A stretch of DNA of 64,000 nt, from NCBI RefSeq assembly GCF_002233675.1, contig NZ_NMUQ01000001.1, forward strand, positions 1,871,590 through 1,935,589, in the 5' to 3' direction. The position numbers and the translations under genes are program-made. Each line of letters opens with the position of its first letter. The stretch's first letter is position 1. The notes beneath the pieces were generated by a model. That model made no database searches and was not told the DNA's origin. It worked only from the letters and a program-made list of their open reading frames with translations. This DNA comes from Paenibacillus herberti. Its GTDB lineage: Bacteria > Bacillota > Bacilli > Paenibacillales > Paenibacillaceae. Positions 12,166 to 19,782 of this stretch are shown here, piece by piece.

Positions 12166-12528
12166 ATGTGCTGCCGTTGTAACAGATTTTTCCCTACAGA
12201 GACAGTGGAAGAGCCGGTTGAAACTGTTTACCGTGATGTTTATTGTCGCCAAAAGATTAGAGTCATTAGACCTATTGAGGTCGTAACACGTTACCACGCT
12301 GTTCCAGTTCGCTGTTATGAGAATAGGTACTTCTTTCGCGATGAAAGAGTAGAACCGGTTGTACCACTTCCGGAACCAATTCCAACACCATTTGTTTATG
12401 GTCAACAAGACAATGTCTACGAACAAGGCGTTTTTAATGCCGAACAACTCAACTATGAGAATGGCCCTACAATTTCCCGCAAAAAATCCAAAGCCAAAAA
12501 ATCTTCAAAATCGCGTTCCAAAAAATAG
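12166..12528 (+). CDS. small CotD-like protein of unknown function
   Basis: A 120-residue soluble protein. It opens with MCCRCNRF, continues with a Val/Tyr/Arg-rich middle containing two more cysteines (VYCRQKI, PVRCYENRY), and ends in a very basic Lys/Ser tail (KKSKAKKSSKSRSKK). Cysteine- and tyrosine-rich composition with repeated valine-arginine pairs resembles small spore-coat proteins such as CotD, but I see no firm family match. AAAGGAG precedes the ATG and a strong terminator follows, so it is a real single-gene unit. Confidence 0.7.
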   Translation: MCCRCNRFFPTETVEEPVETVYRDVYCRQKIRVIRPIEVVTRYHAVPVRCYENRYFFRDERVEPVVPLPEPIPTPFVYGQQDNVYEQGVFNAEQLNYENGPTISRKKSKAKKSSKSRSKK

Positions 12529-12552
12529 TTCAATTTCACTTGGAAACAGAAA

Positions 12553-12583
12553 CCGTTGGGCCTCAGCCCAACGGTCTTTTTTA
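12553..12583 (+). terminator. rho-independent terminator
   Basis: Perfect nine-base arms CCGTTGGGC/GCCCAACGG with a four-base loop, followed by TCTTTTTT. Confidence 0.95.
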
Positions 12584-12714
12584 TTTACCAATTACTAGTA
12601 TACTTTGATACTCATCCTTGTCAATGAACGTGTTTTGTCGGATTTAGTCTAATGATATCGATTAATAAGTCAATACTTCTCTCAACGAACACTGTCTGAG
12701 ACTAATTATTTAAA

Positions 12715-13140
12715 TCATACTTTTTGAATTTTAAAGGTGAATTCCCAATTTGCTTGCTCGCCAGAATAACGTCCCCGATTTTCTACGACGGTTACATCCA
12801 AAGTTTTTGTTACGGTGCCTTTTTTTATAGTTGAAACTTTAATGGACTTACTTGCCTCTCCATCTTCAGGAATTTTATCCTGCTCTTGAGCTTCAGCTTT
12901 AAGCTTGATCGTATCCGAGCCTTTCAAAGTAAGAGTAACGGAGCCTCCTTCTTTGAGCTCCTTACCATTGACGTAGCCGCCCGACCACCACTCATTTCCA
13001 ACATGATTATTTTCAACAAGCTCCGCACTGACAAACGTGATTTTTACTTTTGTTGTTTTGGAAGCTGCTGACAGCGGCTGAACGGCGAGAGTGACGGCAA
13101 CGATCAAACTTAACATAATTCCGACTCTTCTTTTTCCCAT
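12715..13140 (-). CDS. secreted protein of unknown function
   Basis: A 141-residue protein with a clear signal peptide: basic MGKRRVG, hydrophobic core, and a likely cleavage after PLSAAS near residue 27. The mature part is rich in Lys, Thr and Val and looks like an all-beta domain, with WWSGGYVNG and a C-terminal WEFTFKIQKV. I do not recognise a family. The ATG is preceded by GGAGG on the minus strand. The 12600-12714 stretch downstream shows only a weak inverted repeat. Confidence 0.75.
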   Translation of the reverse strand: MGKRRVGIMLSLIVAVTLAVQPLSAASKTTKVKITFVSAELVENNHVGNEWWSGGYVNGKELKEGGSVTLTLKGSDTIKLKAEAQEQDKIPEDGEASKSIKVSTIKKGTVTKTLDVTVVENRGRYSGEQANWEFTFKIQKV

Positions 13141-13241
13141 GTCAAACCTCCATTTTAGGTATATGAACCCATTTGTCCTATCATATAGCAGATAATTGGT
13201 ATATGATGGATATATATATACTGTGGCTAGGCTTTACACAC

Positions 13242-13267
13242 ATAAAAAAAGAGCCATTTTACGGCTC
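13242..13267 (-). terminator. terminator after the chimeric pseudogene
   Basis: On the minus strand GAGCC-gtaaaat-GGCTC followed by seven T. It lies 20 bases past the stop codon of the 13287-14497 remnant. Confidence 0.75.
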
Positions 13268-13286
13268 GGAATTTGAACATCAAATT

Positions 13287-14497
13287 TTAGATAAGACAAA
13301 ATTGAATTACGCCCGACTCAGGCTGAATCCAAATTGAACCCGCCCCTTTTGATAACTCGCCGACATCTCCTTTTTTGCAGTGTACCGTATAGTGATATCC
13401 GTTATATTCGTAGCCGATCTCATCGCTGGCTGCTATCATATGCGGCTCCTGTTTTCGGTCGCTCCAGATCATCTGCAGCCCCCAGTCGCATTGGTCCGCC
13501 ATGATTGTTACCGAATTCTGCGAACAGTTAATTCTCAGTGTGCCGCCTTCTATGATCTCGGCGACCATCAACAGCTCATCCTGCGAAACTTCCGTCACTT
13601 CGAGCGAATCTTCCTGACATCGAAGCGGCACAAGCTCACCATCGGACGAACGGACCATGGGCCAGATCCCCGCCTTGATAAGCGAGTTGCTCCACCTCGC
13701 ACCGTCCATCACGGGGAGTGTATCATAGATGCTGTCCGCGGTGCGGCATGGTTCATGCAAATAACGTTCAGCATAACGCTCATCAAAAATATGAAAATCG
13801 CGAATATACGCCTGCTGATCCTCCCAAAACAAATTCAAGCGATAAAATCGACTGCAATACCAGATGGATTTGCGGCCTTCTTCCTTCCAATAGTGAAGCG
13901 CCGTAATCGCAGAGGCTGGTGTGACCTCATGCTCCGCCTTAAACCAGGTGCCTGAATCCGCAAGCGTCTCTACGATAAGTTCGCCGCGTTCCTGCCAGGT
14001 TTGCAAAAGGCCGATTTGGTCGATCAAGCCGTCTTTGATCCGTGGCCAGCCGAAGGAATTCTCCTGCCCAACTTGCGTGTACCCGAACGAAAGTGCTGGT
14101 GCGCGAAAATTTAAATCGAAAAACCACTGCACCCAATAGGGATTCCCTCCTCCGCCTCGTCCGCCGCTCCCCTCCCCCGCTCCTGCATAGACTGGTTCAA
14201 GTGTGACTACCTCTTGGATCGCATTCTCATCAAGCATGTCCAAATCATATTGATAGATCGGATCACTTCCTAACATACGGAATACAGGTACCGGAATTTG
14301 CTGTGCTTTTGTCTGCGCAGGCATGAAGCTATTTAACCGGCTCGGGTAAAAAGCTTGGTTGTAATAGCCGCCCCACAGCGTATAGCCATCCGTTCCCCAT
14401 TGATCTTTGCAATTGCATGAAGCAACGATTTCATAACGATCTGTTAAATAAGCGAGGAGATGGGCGTCCATAATCCAGGATCCGACCGACTTTGGTA
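13287..14497 (-). pseudogene. 3' remnant of a carbohydrate-related gene, 5' end lost
   Basis: About 400 codons remain open, but the reading frame enters from inside a sensor-kinase fragment without its own start. The preserved part has conserved-looking aromatic motifs (CNCKDQWGTDGYTLWGGYYNQ, FRMLGSDPIYQYD, YWVQWFFDLNF) and a Cys-containing beta-rich C terminus. It resembles large uncharacterised glycoside-hydrolase-like proteins of Paenibacillus, but I cannot name the family. The in-frame ATG at 14471 has no good ribosome binding site. I read it as the 3' half of a gene joined by deletion to the kinase fragment at about 14485-14500. Confidence 0.65.
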
Positions 14498-15455
14498 ACT
14501 TGCATCACCAATATCGCAAGCGAAATCAGGGCGATAAGCAGTGTAACTATGACCACAATTATTGTTGTCTTGCGAATGGAGTCGACTTCCACCAAGAGAC
14601 TTTTTTGCGGGACCATCGCAACAACTGTCCAACCCGATGTTTTGGAGACCGCTCTGGACAAGAAAAATTTTTCTTGATTTATGGAAATACTGCTTTTCTC
14701 CATATTCGGAATTTGATTAAAATCATGTAAAGATCCGATCGTTTGCCTTAACCGATGAGATGCGTTTGGATAAATCAAATTTCCTTCTTCATCAAAAACC
14801 ATAAATTCCGTCTCATTATCCACTTGGGATATATCAATCATTTTCTTAATGACGGACGAGTCAACATCAATTCGGATCACACCGATCACATCGAAGTTTT
14901 CCGTATTTTTAATTTGGCGGGCAAACGTGAAAAATTGCTCTTTCTCTGGTACAAATCTTTCTGCTGCAAACACATAAGGGTCTTTTTTGGATTTAACCGT
15001 TTGGAACCATGCCTGATCCTTCCAAGGCTCGATGAAAGGTTCATGGGATGAAATGAAGGATTTGGTGAAGTAGACATTGCCCTCGGTAAAAATCGTGATA
15101 CGGCGAATGTCGCTATGTTGATACTGCAAATTGACGAGGTATCGATTCATGTAAGTCTGATCTTTAGGATCCGGGAAGTCAATTTGATCCATGGCGTATT
15201 TCATGACAATTTTACGGATATCATCGGAATATAAAGGCATCCGGCTTATTCGGTTAATGTCCCCTAACGTCTTGTTCATATACTCGTTAATCTGGAAATT
15301 CGACTAACGTCGAATATCGATTTCTTTTGAAGGACGGATAAGGAAATTTCATACGACAGATAACCGACTAATATAATTGGAATGAAGATAATGGGAAAGA
15401 ACAACAAGAGCAGCTGATTGCGAAATAACATAACTTTATTGCGTTTCCACAGCAT
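14490..15455 (-). pseudogene. 5' remnant of a YesM-type sensor histidine kinase, frameshifted and truncated
   Basis: The start ATG at 15455 follows GAGGAG and encodes a basic N terminus plus first membrane helix (FRNQLLLLFFPIIFIPIILV). About 50 codons in, near 15293-15310, a one-base shift breaks the frame; downstream the second frame continues the normal sequence (INEYMNKTLGDINRISRMP) through a Cache-like sensor domain to the second membrane helix (LLIALISLAILVMQVTK). There it stops: HAMP, dimerisation and ATPase domains are missing and unrelated sequence begins. So the gene has a frameshift and a large 3' deletion. Confidence 0.8.
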
Positions 15456-15769
15456 AAAAATATCTCCTCATTAATGCTCATATTGTAAAAGATAATTGCG
15501 GAAGCTTATTATGCAATATTATATCCGATTATAAGGCATGCAGTTCTTCTATTTATCTTAAAATAACAGAGAAGACTCCCTCTTCTACAAGGTGGAGCTG
15601 AATCGGCGTTTTTTAGCGCATCCATAAAAACGATTGGCTACGCCCGTTTCGTCTTCAATTATTTCCTGAATAAGTGGAATCAAGCCGAGACAGGGAGTGC
15701 AAGATCTTACCACACATGCTCATCGGACTTACTCCTATTAAGTTGTTGGGAGTGCCATTCGGTCAAAAT

Positions 15770-15819
15770 AAAAACACTCCTTTATTGGTTTTTGAAGCAA
15801 CCAATAAAGGAGTGTTTTT
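15770..15819 (-). terminator. very strong bidirectional hairpin, probable spo0A terminator
   Basis: Two perfectly complementary 21-base arms with an eight-base loop; both ends are A5/T5, so it can stop transcripts in either direction. It lies about 110 bases past the spo0A stop. Confidence 0.85.
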
Positions 15820-15854
15820 ATACATATCATGACGGAAGATTTATAGAGCCTGAC

Positions 15855-15897
15855 CTAGATCAAATTTATATTGATGAGGTTGGTCAAATTGATCTAG
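15855..15897. repeat. inverted repeat in the 15456-15931 gene-free gap
   Basis: CTAGATCAA (15855-15863) and TTGATCTAG (15889-15897) flank a 25-base centre. It is between the terminator and the end of spo0A. Apart from this and the 15770 hairpin I see nothing coding in the 476-base gap. Confidence 0.6.
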
Positions 15898-15931
15898 ACT
15901 CAATCCTTCAAAACCCTTACCCTGTCTAAGT

Positions 15932-16753
15932 TCAGCTAACCTTATGCTCAATCCGAAGCTTGTCAGCAACCATCGCAATAAATTCCGAGTTGGTAGGTTT
16001 TGACTTGCTGATGTTGATCGTATAGCCGAACAGATGGCTGATGCTGTCAATGTTACCGCGCGTCCAAGCGACTTCAATCGCATGCCGTATAGCGCGCTCT
16101 ACACGAGAAGGAGTCGTTTTGAACTTCTCCGCAATGGCTGGATACAACGTTTTCGTAATTGCACCCAGAATCTCAATATTGTTGTACACCATCGTGATCG
16201 CTTCACGGAGATACTGGTAACCTTTAATATGTGCAGGAACACCAATTTCATGAATTATGCTCGTAATATTGGCGTCCAAATTTTTGCCCTTGGCAATCGG
16301 TACCACATTGGACTTGATCAAAGAAGAAGCGCTGGAGAAGGCACTAGATGACGATGTCGACATTACATTTTGATTGCCGACCAATTGACGAACTCGGTTG
16401 GCAAGCATTTCCATATCAAACGGTTTCAGAATGTAATATGAAGCACCAAGCTGAACCGCTTTTTGCGTAATATTTTCTTGGCCGAATGCCGTAAGCATAA
16501 TGATTTTGGGCATCGGTTGAATACTGCTTTCGCGTAAACGTTCCAAAACGCCAAGACCGTCAAGATGAGGCATAATGATATCCAGAATCAGTACATCCGG
16601 AATACGATCTGTTTCCTTGAGCAGACGCAGCACTTCTTCACCGTTGTAGGCAATACCAGTTACTTCCATATCATCCTGTTCGGAGATATATTCGGACAAT
16701 AAATTGGTGAATTCACGGTTATCATCGGCCAGTAATACTTCAATCTTAGACAA
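15932..16753 (-). CDS. spo0A: sporulation master regulator Spo0A
   Basis: A 273-residue response regulator. The receiver domain has the acidic pair in LLADDN, the phosphoryl-accepting Asp58 (VLILDIIMP) and the conserved Lys in YILKPFD. A Ser-rich linker (about 130-145) leads to the C-terminal DNA-binding domain with [36 protein letters not shown] and [12 protein letters not shown]. Phosphorylated Spo0A starts sporulation and tunes stationary-phase genes. The start is TTG, eight bases after GAAGGAGG. Its promoter is now separated from it by an IS element only 41 bases upstream, which may severely alter expression. The coding sequence itself looks intact. Confidence 0.97.
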
Positions 16754-16793
16754 GGTTGATCCTCCTTCATCACGTTGAGATAGTCTGTTATTT

Positions 16794-16802
16794 GCTTATT
16801 AT
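16794..16802. repeat. left target-site duplication of the IS element
   Basis: GCTTATTAT, identical to 18250-18258 on the other side of the element. Confidence 0.9.
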
Positions 16803-18249
16803 CACTAGCGTTGCATAAATAATTTCCGAATGTTCAAAATCTTCAGTTTCCCTATTTCGACACAAAAAAAGATCCTTTACAATGGGTATGGGAGGTAGTT
16901 CCTGTCCATAATCCACTGAAAGGATCAGCGCATGGATAAGGATACCCTATTTTCTTCATTTGGTAAATGGGTTGCACCCATTTTTTCAACAACGTTTTTA
17001 GATCAACTTGCTCAGAATCACGCAGATGCCTACGTCAAGAAGCTTACGGTTCCGGCCTATTTGAAACTATTCTTGCATGCCCAGCTTCAACAGCGCGAAG
17101 GACTCCGGAGCATTGCAGATGATGTCCTGAGCAAAGACTTTCAGCAAGAACTGGGTTTTGAGTCCATCTCGTTTAGCCAGCTATGCCGCAAGAACAACCA
17201 GGTGAATCCTGCCTTGCTCGAAAATCTGTTTGAGCAGCTAGCCAGGAAGGTCCTACGTAGCGAAGGCGCCACGGCTGCAGATCGTAAAACCGTCCAGGTG
17301 ATCGACTCGACCACCATTTCCCTGTGCCTGCAGAGATACAAATGGGCCGAATTCCGTCAAACCAAAGCGGGCATTAAGATTCATCTACGTCTGGCGTTTA
17401 TGGGGAAAGAGAGCGTTCTGCCTGAGCGTGCGACAATTACGACGGCGAAGAAAAACGACCGTACACAGATGGACGCCCTTATCGACGAGGAAGGCGCCAC
17501 GTATCTATTCGATCGCGGTTATGTGGATTACAAGGCGTTCGATGATTACACGGAGCGCGGCATCCACTTCGTCACCCGGCTGAAAAACAACGCTGTCATT
17601 GAACCCCTAGAATCCTTCCCCATCCCGATGGAAAGCAGGGTGACGATGGATGAACGCGTACGGATCGGATCGGCGTCCAAGCGGGCTAAGCGGGAGTACC
17701 GCATGATTGAAACGGCGGATTCGGAAGGAAATCTGCTCATCCTAGTGACCAACCGCTTCGAACTGACGTGCGACGAGATTTCGGATATGTACCGGAGCCG
17801 CTGGGCAATTGAAACGTTCTTCAAGTGGATGAAGCAGCATCTTCGAATCAAACGGTTTTACGGCACCAGCGAACGGGCCGTGCAAAACCAGGTCTGGATG
17901 GCGCTCATTGCCTACTGCCTGCTCGTGCTGGTGAAAAAAAAGACGCAGACGCCGCATTCGCTGCTGATGCTAAGCCGCTGGCTCCGGGTACTGTTGTGGA
18001 AGCCGGCAGAGCAATGGTTAAGGCGGATTCATCGGCCACCGAGCCGCAAGTCGGCAGGACGCCGAAGGTTGAATTCAACCTGAGCAAAAGGGCCTGAGGC
18101 CTGTTGGTATTCACGTAGCAGAATATACATAAACTACCAAATGGACAGGACTACCTTTGAGAGGAGTTCGACCTTTTGGTTTTGTTGACATCGATAGTGT
18201 GTTTGAATATTCAATTTATTTTATTGTGAAGGTTTATGCAACGCTAGTG
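16803..18249 (+). mobile_element. complete IS4-family insertion sequence, 1447 bp
   Basis: Both ends carry the 17-base perfect inverted repeat CACTAGCGTTGCATAAA, and a nine-base direct duplication flanks them. One intact transposase gene fills the middle, with 129 bases to its left and 166 to its right. Intact gene, perfect ends and perfect duplication suggest a recent insertion. The element sits in the spoIVB-spo0A intergenic region, opposite in orientation to both. Confidence 0.96.
16932..18083 (+). CDS. IS4-family DDE transposase
   Basis: A 383-residue transposase of normal length. The three acidic residues are in VIDSTTI, YLFDRGYVDY and the YRSRWAIETFFKWMKQHLRIKRFYG region (a Y-x2-R-x3-E-x6-K signature). 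A helical N-terminal DNA-binding part precedes it and a basic tail ends it. It has no frameshift, so the element may be active. It moves the IS by cut-and-paste. Confidence 0.95.
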   Translation: MDKDTLFSSFGKWVAPIFSTTFLDQLAQNHADAYVKKLTVPAYLKLFLHAQLQQREGLRSIADDVLSKDFQQELGFESISFSQLCRKNNQVNPALLENLFEQLARKVLRSEGATAADRKTVQVIDSTTISLCLQRYKWAEFRQTKAGIKIHLRLAFMGKESVLPERATITTAKKNDRTQMDALIDEEGATYLFDRGYVDYKAFDDYTERGIHFVTRLKNNAVIEPLESFPIPMESRVTMDERVRIGSASKRAKREYRMIETADSEGNLLILVTNRFELTCDEISDMYRSRWAIETFFKWMKQHLRIKRFYGTSERAVQNQVWMALIAYCLLVLVKKKTQTPHSLLMLSRWLRVLLWKPAEQWLRRIHRPPSRKSAGRRRLNST

Positions 18250-18258
18250 GCTTATTAT
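18250..18258. repeat. right target-site duplication of the IS element
   Basis: GCTTATTAT, matching 16794-16802. Confidence 0.9.
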
Positions 18259-18260
18259 AT

Positions 18261-18381
18261 CGATTCGACAGCTCAGATTGATTTCCTTCTGTCGAATATT
18301 ATTTTTCTTTCTTTTTCCAACTTGATTATGTATAATAAATAATTTACTACATTTATTGACCTTATGAGATATTTTTCGACA
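18261..18381 (-). promoter_or_regulatory. spo0A sigma-H promoter with Spo0A boxes, now cut off by the IS
   Basis: On the minus strand GAAGGAAAT (18289-18281), an 11-base spacer and GTCGAATCG (18269-18261) fit the sigma-H consensus RnAGGAwww-N11-RnnGAATww. Three perfect Spo0A-box cores TGTCGAA stand at 18270-18264, 18290-18296 (opposite direction) and 18381-18375. The expected start point falls in the IS target duplication, so the native leader would have been about 50 bases. Confidence 0.75.
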
Positions 18382-18390
18382 TACAAACAA

Positions 18391-18426
18391 CAAAAATCTC
18401 AGGGCTAAGCAGCCTTGAGATTTTTG
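18391..18426 (-). terminator. spoIVB terminator
   Basis: CAAAAATCTCA and TGAGATTTTTG arms with an inner GGCT/AGCC stem. The spoIVB stop codon lies inside the loop side of the hairpin. Confidence 0.85.
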
Positions 18427-19730
18427 TTAGCTGTACGCAACATGATGCCAGCATCTTGAAGCATCCATTCAATAAAACAACCATAACCCGATGAAGGATC
18501 ATTGACAAATACATGGGTTACAGCTCCAATCAGTTTTCCATTTTGAATGATTGGACTGCCCGACATTCCTTGTACAATACCTCCAGTCAGCTCCAGCAAT
18601 TTAGGATCGGTAACTTTGATAACCATCCCTTTTGTTGCAGGCTGCTTCTGCTTACTCACATGACTGATTTGAACTTTGAACCGTTCAACCTTCTGTCCAT
18701 TGAGGACGGTCAGAATTTCAGCTGGACCTTCCTGAACCTCTTCAGAAAAAGCGACCGGTACTGCTTCGGACTGATAGCTGTGACCTGGAAGCTGCCCCAT
18801 CTTGCCAAAGATGCCAAATGGCGTATTACGCTCGATATTGCCCAAAATATTCGCTTCATTTACAAATGTAGCTCGTTTTTCTCCTGGCTCACCGTTTTGA
18901 CTTTTGTTGATCGACGTAACATTGGATTCTAATATTTGACCCTCGCCCACCTCAATTGCCGTACCTGTGTCGAGATCGGTGATTACATGGCCTAATGCGC
19001 CATAGACGCCTTGATCAGGGGCAAAGAAGGTCAACGTACCAACACCTGCAGCTGAATCGCGAATATACAGTCCAATCCGCCACGCACTATCCTCATAGTC
19101 GTAAGCAGGCTTAAGCTTAACGGACATGAGTTTTCCTGAACGTTTGATCGTAAGCTTCATCGGATGCTGGTTGCTTCCCGCTTGTTCGGTGAACTTTGCA
19201 ATTTGCTTGACTTCACGGACTCTGTGACCGTCAATTTCCATAATTAGATCACCTAAACGGATGCCAGCTATCTCTCCCGGAGAAACTTTAGTATCGGCGT
19301 TTTCATGTACAAGATGATGGCCAACAACAAGGACACCGGAGGACTTCACTTTGACACCAATGGTTTGTCCACCTGGTATCACCTTAAGATCAGGGACGAC
19401 ATCGACATGTACCGTTTTAAAAGGAATTTTGCCAAACAGCTTCAGGGACATTGTAGCTCGACCGCTTTGACGCGGTTCGATCGAAATCGGCTTTTGCAAA
19501 TCAAGCACTTGGCGATGCTCAGCTTTCCCATTTACATGAAGGATGTTTGAATCCACCGTCATGTCCGCATGGACAGGCATGTTGTATTCCAGCCGTTTCA
19601 ATTGCCCGGAGAACAAACGCAGTTCATTCGGAAACGAGGCATAATTCAGGAACGGACTGGAGATGCCGATCATGCAAACGAAGAATACGAGAACTAGTCC
19701 GAACCACCGCTTCCGCTGGTTGGCGTTCAT
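18405..19730 (-). CDS. spoIVB: SpoIVB serine peptidase (signal for sigma-K activation)
   Basis: A 441-residue protein: N-terminal membrane anchor (about 8-28), a PDZ domain (about 130-215, with GIRLGDLIMEIDGHRV), and the S55 peptidase domain with GALGHVITD (catalytic His) and GMSGSPIIQNGK (catalytic Ser). It is secreted from the forespore and cleaves SpoIVFA so that pro-sigma-K is processed. The ATG at 19730 is preceded by GGGAG; an upstream ATG has no binding site. Gene order recN-spoIVB-spo0A is the classical one, except for the IS between the last two. Confidence 0.95.
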   Translation of the reverse strand: MNANQRKRWFGLVLVFFVCMIGISSPFLNYASFPNELRLFSGQLKRLEYNMPVHADMTVDSNILHVNGKAEHRQVLDLQKPISIEPRQSGRATMSLKLFGKIPFKTVHVDVVPDLKVIPGGQTIGVKVKSSGVLVVGHHLVHENADTKVSPGEIAGIRLGDLIMEIDGHRVREVKQIAKFTEQAGSNQHPMKLTIKRSGKLMSVKLKPAYDYEDSAWRIGLYIRDSAAGVGTLTFFAPDQGVYGALGHVITDLDTGTAIEVGEGQILESNVTSINKSQNGEPGEKRATFVNEANILGNIERNTPFGIFGKMGQLPGHSYQSEAVPVAFSEEVQEGPAEILTVLNGQKVERFKVQISHVSKQKQPATKGMVIKVTDPKLLELTGGIVQGMSGSPIIQNGKLIGAVTHVFVNDPSSGYGCFIEWMLQDAGIMLRTANKNLKAA

Positions 19731-19782
19731 GATCTCACGCTCCCTGTAGTTCCATCGCTTGACGATTGGTCTCGCCAATTGC

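What the first reader, a model, noticed from the sequence alone, without database searches (positions are those of the whole stretch)
16794..18381. Complete IS4-family element inserted at the start point of the spo0A sigma-H promoter
The sequence shows perfect 17-bp ends, a 9-bp duplication and an intact transposase gene. On its right side remains a good sigma-H promoter with three Spo0A-box cores reading toward spo0A; on its left the spo0A start codon is only 41 bases away. So promoter and gene are now 1.45 kb apart, with the transposase in the opposite direction. I found no clear outward promoter in the IS end. Either spo0A is poorly expressed and the strain sporulates badly, or read-through or a hidden promoter rescues it. 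As all sporulation genes depend on Spo0A, this one event may decide the phenotype.
Basis: partly seen in the sequence, partly recalled or inferred. Interest (0 to 1): 0.78.

Follow-up and report, generated by a model that had tools for sequence, protein, structure and literature searches.

The report
Jumping gene splits spo0A from promoter
A complete, apparently recent insertion sequence sits between the master sporulation gene spo0A and its conserved control region in a Paenibacillus-type bacterium, and it carries a terminator-like hairpin facing spo0A, so sporulation is probably weakened or lost in this strain, although no expression or spore data were available to prove it.

Summary
A 1447-bp IS4-family element (16803-18249) with perfect 17-bp inverted ends, a 9-bp target duplication and an intact transposase lies between spo0A (TTG start at 16753) and the spo0A sigma-H/Spo0A-box control region (18263-18381). 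The closest genus member held, 93% identical here, has the empty site. In 107 of 107 other loci where the spoIVB-spo0A gap could be estimated it is 151-447 bp; here it is 1651 bp. Five identical copies of the element, each with its own perfect 9-bp duplication, argue for a recent burst and against an assembly error. On the other strand the same hairpin covers the transposase ribosome-binding site. No outward promoter better than chance was found. The likeliest reading is that transcription from the retained promoter runs antisense through the element and mostly stops before spo0A, so the strain sporulates poorly or not at all. Expression and phenotype are untested. This is a notable case of a well-known kind of event.

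The parts
16803..18249 (+). IS4-family insertion sequence, 1447 bp
   Evidence: perfect 17-bp ends; 5 identical copies in the genome
16794..16802 (.). left copy of 9-bp target duplication GCTTATTAT
   Evidence: single copy in relative G007
18250..18258 (.). right copy of 9-bp target duplication
16932..18083 (+). transposase gene, 383 aa, DDE, IS4 family
16871..16926 (-). hairpin in IS left end; on the minus strand followed by U7 (terminator-like, facing spo0A); on the plus strand it includes the presumed transposase Shine-Dalgarno sequence AAAGGAT (16919-16925)
   Evidence: folds of both strands with shuffles, conservation in related elements, window-wide terminator scan
16864..16870 (-). U7 tract directly after the hairpin, reading toward spo0A
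15932..16753 (-). spo0A, 273 aa, TTG start, intact
18263..18287 (-). retained sigma-H-type spo0A promoter (AGGAAAT - 13 - CGAAT)
   Evidence: block conserved in relatives
18264..18270 (-). Spo0A-box core TGTCGAA overlapping the -10
18290..18296 (+). Spo0A-box core, two bases upstream of the -35 stretch AGGAAAT
18375..18381 (-). third Spo0A-box core, farther upstream
18405..19778 (-). spoIVB, intact upstream neighbour

Best explanation
A young, probably active IS4-family element jumped into the predicted start point of the spo0A sigma-H promoter (insertion shown by the empty site in a relative, the duplication and the identical copies). The conserved Spo0A/sigma-H control block is now on the far side of the element (shown). 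Transcripts from that block must run about 1.45 kb antisense to the transposase and then meet a hairpin + U7 that ends 110 bases before the spo0A start codon (sequence shown, termination inferred). With no outward promoter better than chance found, the Spo0A auto-activation loop is probably broken and spo0A is expressed at a low level, giving a sporulation-deficient or poorly sporulating strain (inferred). The hairpin is a normal part of this group of elements: on the sense strand it would hide the transposase ribosome-binding site in transcripts entering from outside, and on the antisense strand it would act as a terminator (both inferred from conserved sequence).
For: Exact ends and duplication. 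Empty site in G007. spoIVB-spo0A gap 151-447 bp in 107 of 107 estimated loci. Paired Spo0A boxes framing the promoter in 96 of 109 upstream regions, the block lying on the far side here. A 96-base stretch around the hairpin folds at -29.7 kcal/mol on the minus strand, z -3.48, 2 of 200 shuffles as good. Strict terminator scan: 6 sites in 64 kb against 0-3 in each of 10 random sequences; this hairpin is one of the six. Hairpin pairs kept in 251 of 259 cells and a U-tract of 5-7 in 20 of 20 distinct left ends. Promoter scans of the left end no better than shuffles. Single spo0A. CRISPRi of spo0A strongly reduced spore formation in Paenibacillus sonchi (PMC7229006, passages read).
Against: No RNA or spore data. 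Consensus scans miss weak or unusual promoters, and low spo0A expression may suffice for some sporulation. The hairpin is long, with only three G-C pairs in its eight basal pairs, so its termination efficiency is unknown. Pair changes are nearly all one-sided (one cell with a change on both sides), so covariation support is weak. spo0A and the other sporulation genes that matched their families are intact, so nothing shows that the lineage has long lost sporulation. Changes upstream of spo0A need not lower sporulation: a Clostridium isolate with a mutation there sporulated early (PMC9239077, passages read).
Confidence: 0.68

Rival explanations
1. The insertion is tolerated: read-through, a weak outward promoter in or next to the IS left end, or a hybrid promoter at the junction gives enough Spo0A, with altered timing but near-normal sporulation.
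For: spo0A and the other sporulation genes that matched their families are intact. The junction has a GATAAT hexamer reading toward spo0A, with CGGAAA 19 bases upstream, 8 of 12 matches in all.
Against: The best sigma-A-like score in 16754-16960 (9) is reached or passed by 86 of 100 shuffles, and the GATAAT site scores lower (7). No sigma-H-like site: best score -12.0 in the IS and -19.9 in the left region against 22.9-44.3 for the promoters of relatives. The hairpin + U7 faces read-through.
Confidence: 0.25
2. Assembly artefact: the element is a repeat wrongly joined into the spo0A upstream region.
For: The genome has 17 contigs and five identical copies of the element, the situation in which misjoins occur.
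Against: Each of the five identical copies has its own perfect 9-bp duplication. Both flanks here are the two halves of the orthologous spo0A region and meet at the place of the single GCTTATTAT of G007. All five copies lie inside contigs.
Confidence: 0.03
3. Reversible switch: the element is lost from part of the population, so sporulation is an on/off trait, loosely like the skin elements in sigK of other spore-formers.
For: The transposase is intact and copies are identical, so the element is probably mobile.
Against: Ordinary IS excision would not be expected to restore the single target cleanly (recalled). Nothing seen points to developmental timing; no separate recombinase was searched for.
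Confidence: 0.04

Closest known systems
IS4 family, including IS4Bsu1 of Bacillus subtilis (Nagai et al. 2000; only its title seen, as a reference in PMC10654089; the paper is not held)
   Same: DDE transposase of the IS4 type; by that title IS4Bsu1 makes poly-gamma-glutamate production unstable, so it too changes a regulated trait by insertion
   Different: The sequence of IS4Bsu1 was not compared. The ISfinder name of the window's element could not be looked up.
Transposase control by RNA structure or antisense RNA: ISPpu9, IS10, IS30, IS200 (PMC8450116, passages read); IS10/IS50 hiding of the ribosome-binding site in incoming transcripts is recalled
   Same: A structure in the transposase leader covers the ribosome-binding site
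   Different: Here the opposite strand of the same hairpin ends in a U-tract and so looks like a terminator; no antisense promoter was shown.
IS insertions that separate a gene from its promoter (common spontaneous regulatory mutation; general knowledge)
   Same: Promoter and gene are intact but parted by the element
   Different: The target is spo0A, and the parted block also holds its self-activation sites.

Membership tests
IS4 family | transposase of IS4 type | tested here: met
   NF033592 249.2 bits, cut-off 115, positions 4-331 of 332; PF01609 118.8 bits
IS4 family | YREK signature Y-x2-R-x3-E-x6-K (motif recalled) | tested here: met
   present in YRSRWAIETFFKWMK of the translation, read by eye
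IS4 family | terminal inverted repeats and 9-12 bp duplication (range recalled) | tested here: met
   17 of 17 bp ends; 9-bp duplication at 5 of 5 identical copies
IS4 family | observed transposition | not testable with these tools
   five identical copies suggest it; no assay
Intrinsic terminator | stable stem-loop directly followed by a U-tract | tested here: met
   the stock scan does not list it, its loop limit being 3-8 bases
Intrinsic terminator | stops transcription | not testable with these tools
   needs RNA or reporter data
Outward promoter in IS end | -35/-10 or hybrid promoter reading toward spo0A, better than chance | tested here: not met
   (consensus scans only)
spo0A sigma-H promoter with Spo0A boxes | conserved block TTCGACA, AGGAnnT, TGTCGAA upstream of spo0A | tested here: met
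   own sequence has TTCGACA-N19-TGTCGAA; the pair with N17-20 is found in 96 of 109 upstream regions of relatives

The most novel reading that the evidence does not exclude
The conserved left-end hairpin makes this group of elements self-insulating in both directions, so that an insertion in a promoter region in this orientation becomes a ready-made off switch for the gene behind it; here it has uncoupled the Spo0A auto-activation loop, and the lineage lives with a low, no longer self-amplifying Spo0A level that favours biofilm growth over spores and can revert by loss of the element.
Probability: 0.08. Interest if true: 0.65.

Novelty: new member of a known kind. Interest (0 to 1): 0.42.

Why it matters
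spo0A starts sporulation and also controls biofilm and stationary-phase traits, so one insertion here can decide how the organism survives. The layout offers a clean natural test of how much sporulation depends on the self-activating promoter when the coding gene is untouched. The two-sided hairpin is a simple, testable rule for predicting which insertions of this element group silence a neighbouring gene.

Tried and rejected
Sigma-A and sigma-H promoter search in the IS left end: nothing above shuffles. A plus-strand promoter-like site (16775-16802, 10 of 12) reads from the left flank into the element, not toward spo0A; the region holds 3 such sites against 4.8 expected, so I do not build on it. 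A second terminator-like site inside the transposase gene (minus strand 17957-17943, T8; 3 terminator-like sites found against 2.9 expected) has lost its T-run in the 75-76% relatives L136 and L127, and no match was found in L146 or L147, so I do not rely on it. A Spo0A-box core inside the IS (16856-16862) is absent from the four other full-length elements compared (L136, L127, L146, L147) and is treated as chance. Rfam at gathering thresholds: 0 matches in the window. Plasmid collection: 5 records, none covering 80% of the element, best 78% at 68.9% identity. A second spo0A in the genome: none; the next of 82 matches is 57.4 bits against 581.8. Literature: eight searches of the paper library (some listings capped at 15 rows); I saw only titles and abstract starts there, and none of the listed ones reports an IS between spo0A and its promoter in Paenibacillus; most subscription journals are not held. 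I could not name the species: near records may be left out of the named collection.

What the counts cover. Two of the 109 (L050, L077) gave no gap. Gaps are estimates, as the spoIVB end was extrapolated from the alignment. Left ends: 26 stretches were found; 24 had the A-run/stem core (not L127_5, a short palindrome of two IS ends, nor L015_25, truncated); 23 had a readable start codon by my pattern; 20 were distinct. L154, dropped at that step, has a less regular U-tract. They come from loci of the best matches only. In one search at most a few candidates per genome were scored, so its copy counts are lower bounds. The promoter set includes G007, whose promoter stretch is identical to this one. 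The random sequences keep only neighbour frequencies.

Full report
What was checked. The window lies in contig C1 of a 5.41-Mb, 17-contig genome, 99.99% complete, of a Paenibacillus-type bacterium: the 80 best spo0A relatives kept from the named collection are nearly all labelled Paenibacillus or Cohnella. The species itself could not be named. The element is 16803-18249, 1447 bp, with 17 perfectly inverted terminal bases and the duplication GCTTATTAT on both sides. Its transposase frame (16932-18083) is complete and passes the NCBIfam IS4 cut-off.

It is a real and apparently recent insertion. The genome holds five copies that are 100% identical over 1447 bp, and each of the five has its own perfect 9-bp duplication, five different sequences. 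A second group of five copies is 76% identical; four of these five have matching duplications and one (L010) does not. By stop-to-stop frames running up to both ends, two of the other four identical copies (L003, L004) lie inside open frames and two (L002, L005) lie between them, so there is no sign that the element aims at spo0A. In the genus, 3 of 8 genomes have any match to the element; apart from this genome the only full-length one is a 75% copy in G007. G007, 93% identical in the spo0A region, has the uninterrupted sequence with one GCTTATTAT. In 109 other loci of Paenibacillaceae and relatives the spoIVB-spo0A gap could be estimated in 107; it is 151-447 bp, median 224, against 1651 bp here.

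What was split. In 96 of the 109 upstream regions the pair TTCGACA ... TGTCGAA is present with 17-20 bases between; 91 distinct ones have 19. Between them sits GAAGGA, the sigma-H -35, and the second box overlaps the -10. Conservation falls off within about 12 bases after the -10. In the window this entire block is on the right side of the element. The retained promoter scores 30.1 on a matrix from 90 promoters whose own range is 22.9-44.3 (the set includes the identical stretch of G007). In G007 the -10 ends about 55 bases before the start codon; here about 1510.

What the element puts in front of spo0A. The left end holds a hairpin, 16871-16926, with A7 before it on the plus strand. Read toward spo0A it is a stem-loop followed at once by U7; a 96-base stretch around it folds at -29.7 kcal/mol (z -3.48, 2 of 200 shuffles as good), and at -26.5 on the plus strand (z -2.39, 2 of 200). 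A strict scan for stems of at least five basal pairs and -15 kcal/mol directly before a T-run found six sites in the whole window; ten random sequences of the same neighbour frequencies gave 0-3 each. Four of the other five lie 40-52 bp past the end of an open frame on their strand; the fifth (45406, plus) is about 400 bp past one. The sixth is this hairpin. Among 20 distinct left ends of related elements, the 13 counted pairs are kept in 251 of 259 cells, and a U-tract of 5-7 follows in 20 of 20. The changes are nearly all one-sided, so this is conservation of sequence and structure together, not strong covariation. On the plus strand the same stem includes AAAGGAT, the presumed Shine-Dalgarno sequence, 6 bases before the transposase ATG. 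The plausible native role is to keep transposase translation low in transcripts that enter from outside and to stop antisense transcripts; both are inferred.

Rescue looks weak. No minus-strand sigma-A-like site was listed in 15900-18500. A looser scan of 16754-16960 gave a best score that 86 of 100 shuffles reach or pass. The best sigma-H-like score is -12.0 in the element and -19.9 in the left region. These scans cannot exclude a weak promoter. The genome has one spo0A. spoIVB, spoIIE and the spoIIIA genes AA, AB, AD, AE, AF and AG pass their family cut-offs with open frames, so there is no sign of long decay of sporulation, in line with a recent event. The 267-aa frame where SpoIIIAH is expected gave no NCBIfam match at 1e-5; SpoIIIAC was not examined.

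Likely consequence. In Paenibacillus sonchi, CRISPRi of spo0A lowered its mRNA, strongly reduced spore formation (no formed spores seen up to 72 h in one passage; 'few spore counts' in the discussion) and increased biofilm (PMC7229006, passages read). By analogy this strain probably sporulates poorly or not at all. Against this, a Clostridium isolate with a mutation upstream of spo0A sporulated early (PMC9239077, passages read), so the direction of an upstream change cannot be taken for granted. No RNA or phenotype was available here.

Verdict. Observation confirmed; interpretation sharpened toward loss of expression by the terminator-like hairpin, confidence 0.68. The kind of event is well known; the target and the two-sided hairpin make it worth a simple experiment.

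Noticed in passing
window 12526-15931: In relative G007 a CotD-like gene (name by eye) lies just beyond the 3' end of spo0A; here its 85% match is at 12166-12525, so some 3 kb of extra DNA lies between. It holds a frame that looks like a truncated sensor protein (14431-15279) and an overlapping frame 13287-14471 of glycosidase-like look (both by eye).
   Followed up: partly
window 15600-15740, + strand: A short stretch whose translation resembles the N-terminal part of an IS605-type TnpB, cut off (recognised from memory).
   Followed up: no
L127 136-190: A palindrome of about 55 bp made of two ends of this IS back to back, with the same 17-bp termini: a possible minimal MITE in G007.
   Followed up: no
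window 16893-16909 and the mirrored place in the right end: A motif like AGGTAGTNCCTGTCCAT lies about 90-93 bp from each IS end in inverted orientation, also in L136 and L127; in L146 the right copy is at 83, and in L147 only the left one was found. The right-end copy is part of a hairpin that may end the transposase transcript.
   Followed up: partly
L087 (Paenibacillus bouchesdurhonensis): The spo0A sigma-H promoter with its Spo0A box is present twice, 28 bp apart.
   Followed up: no
L003 and L004 (copies at C7:829529-830975 and C12:52763-54209): Identical copies of the element split open frames; the one in L004 begins with a P-loop-like stretch (by eye).
   Followed up: no
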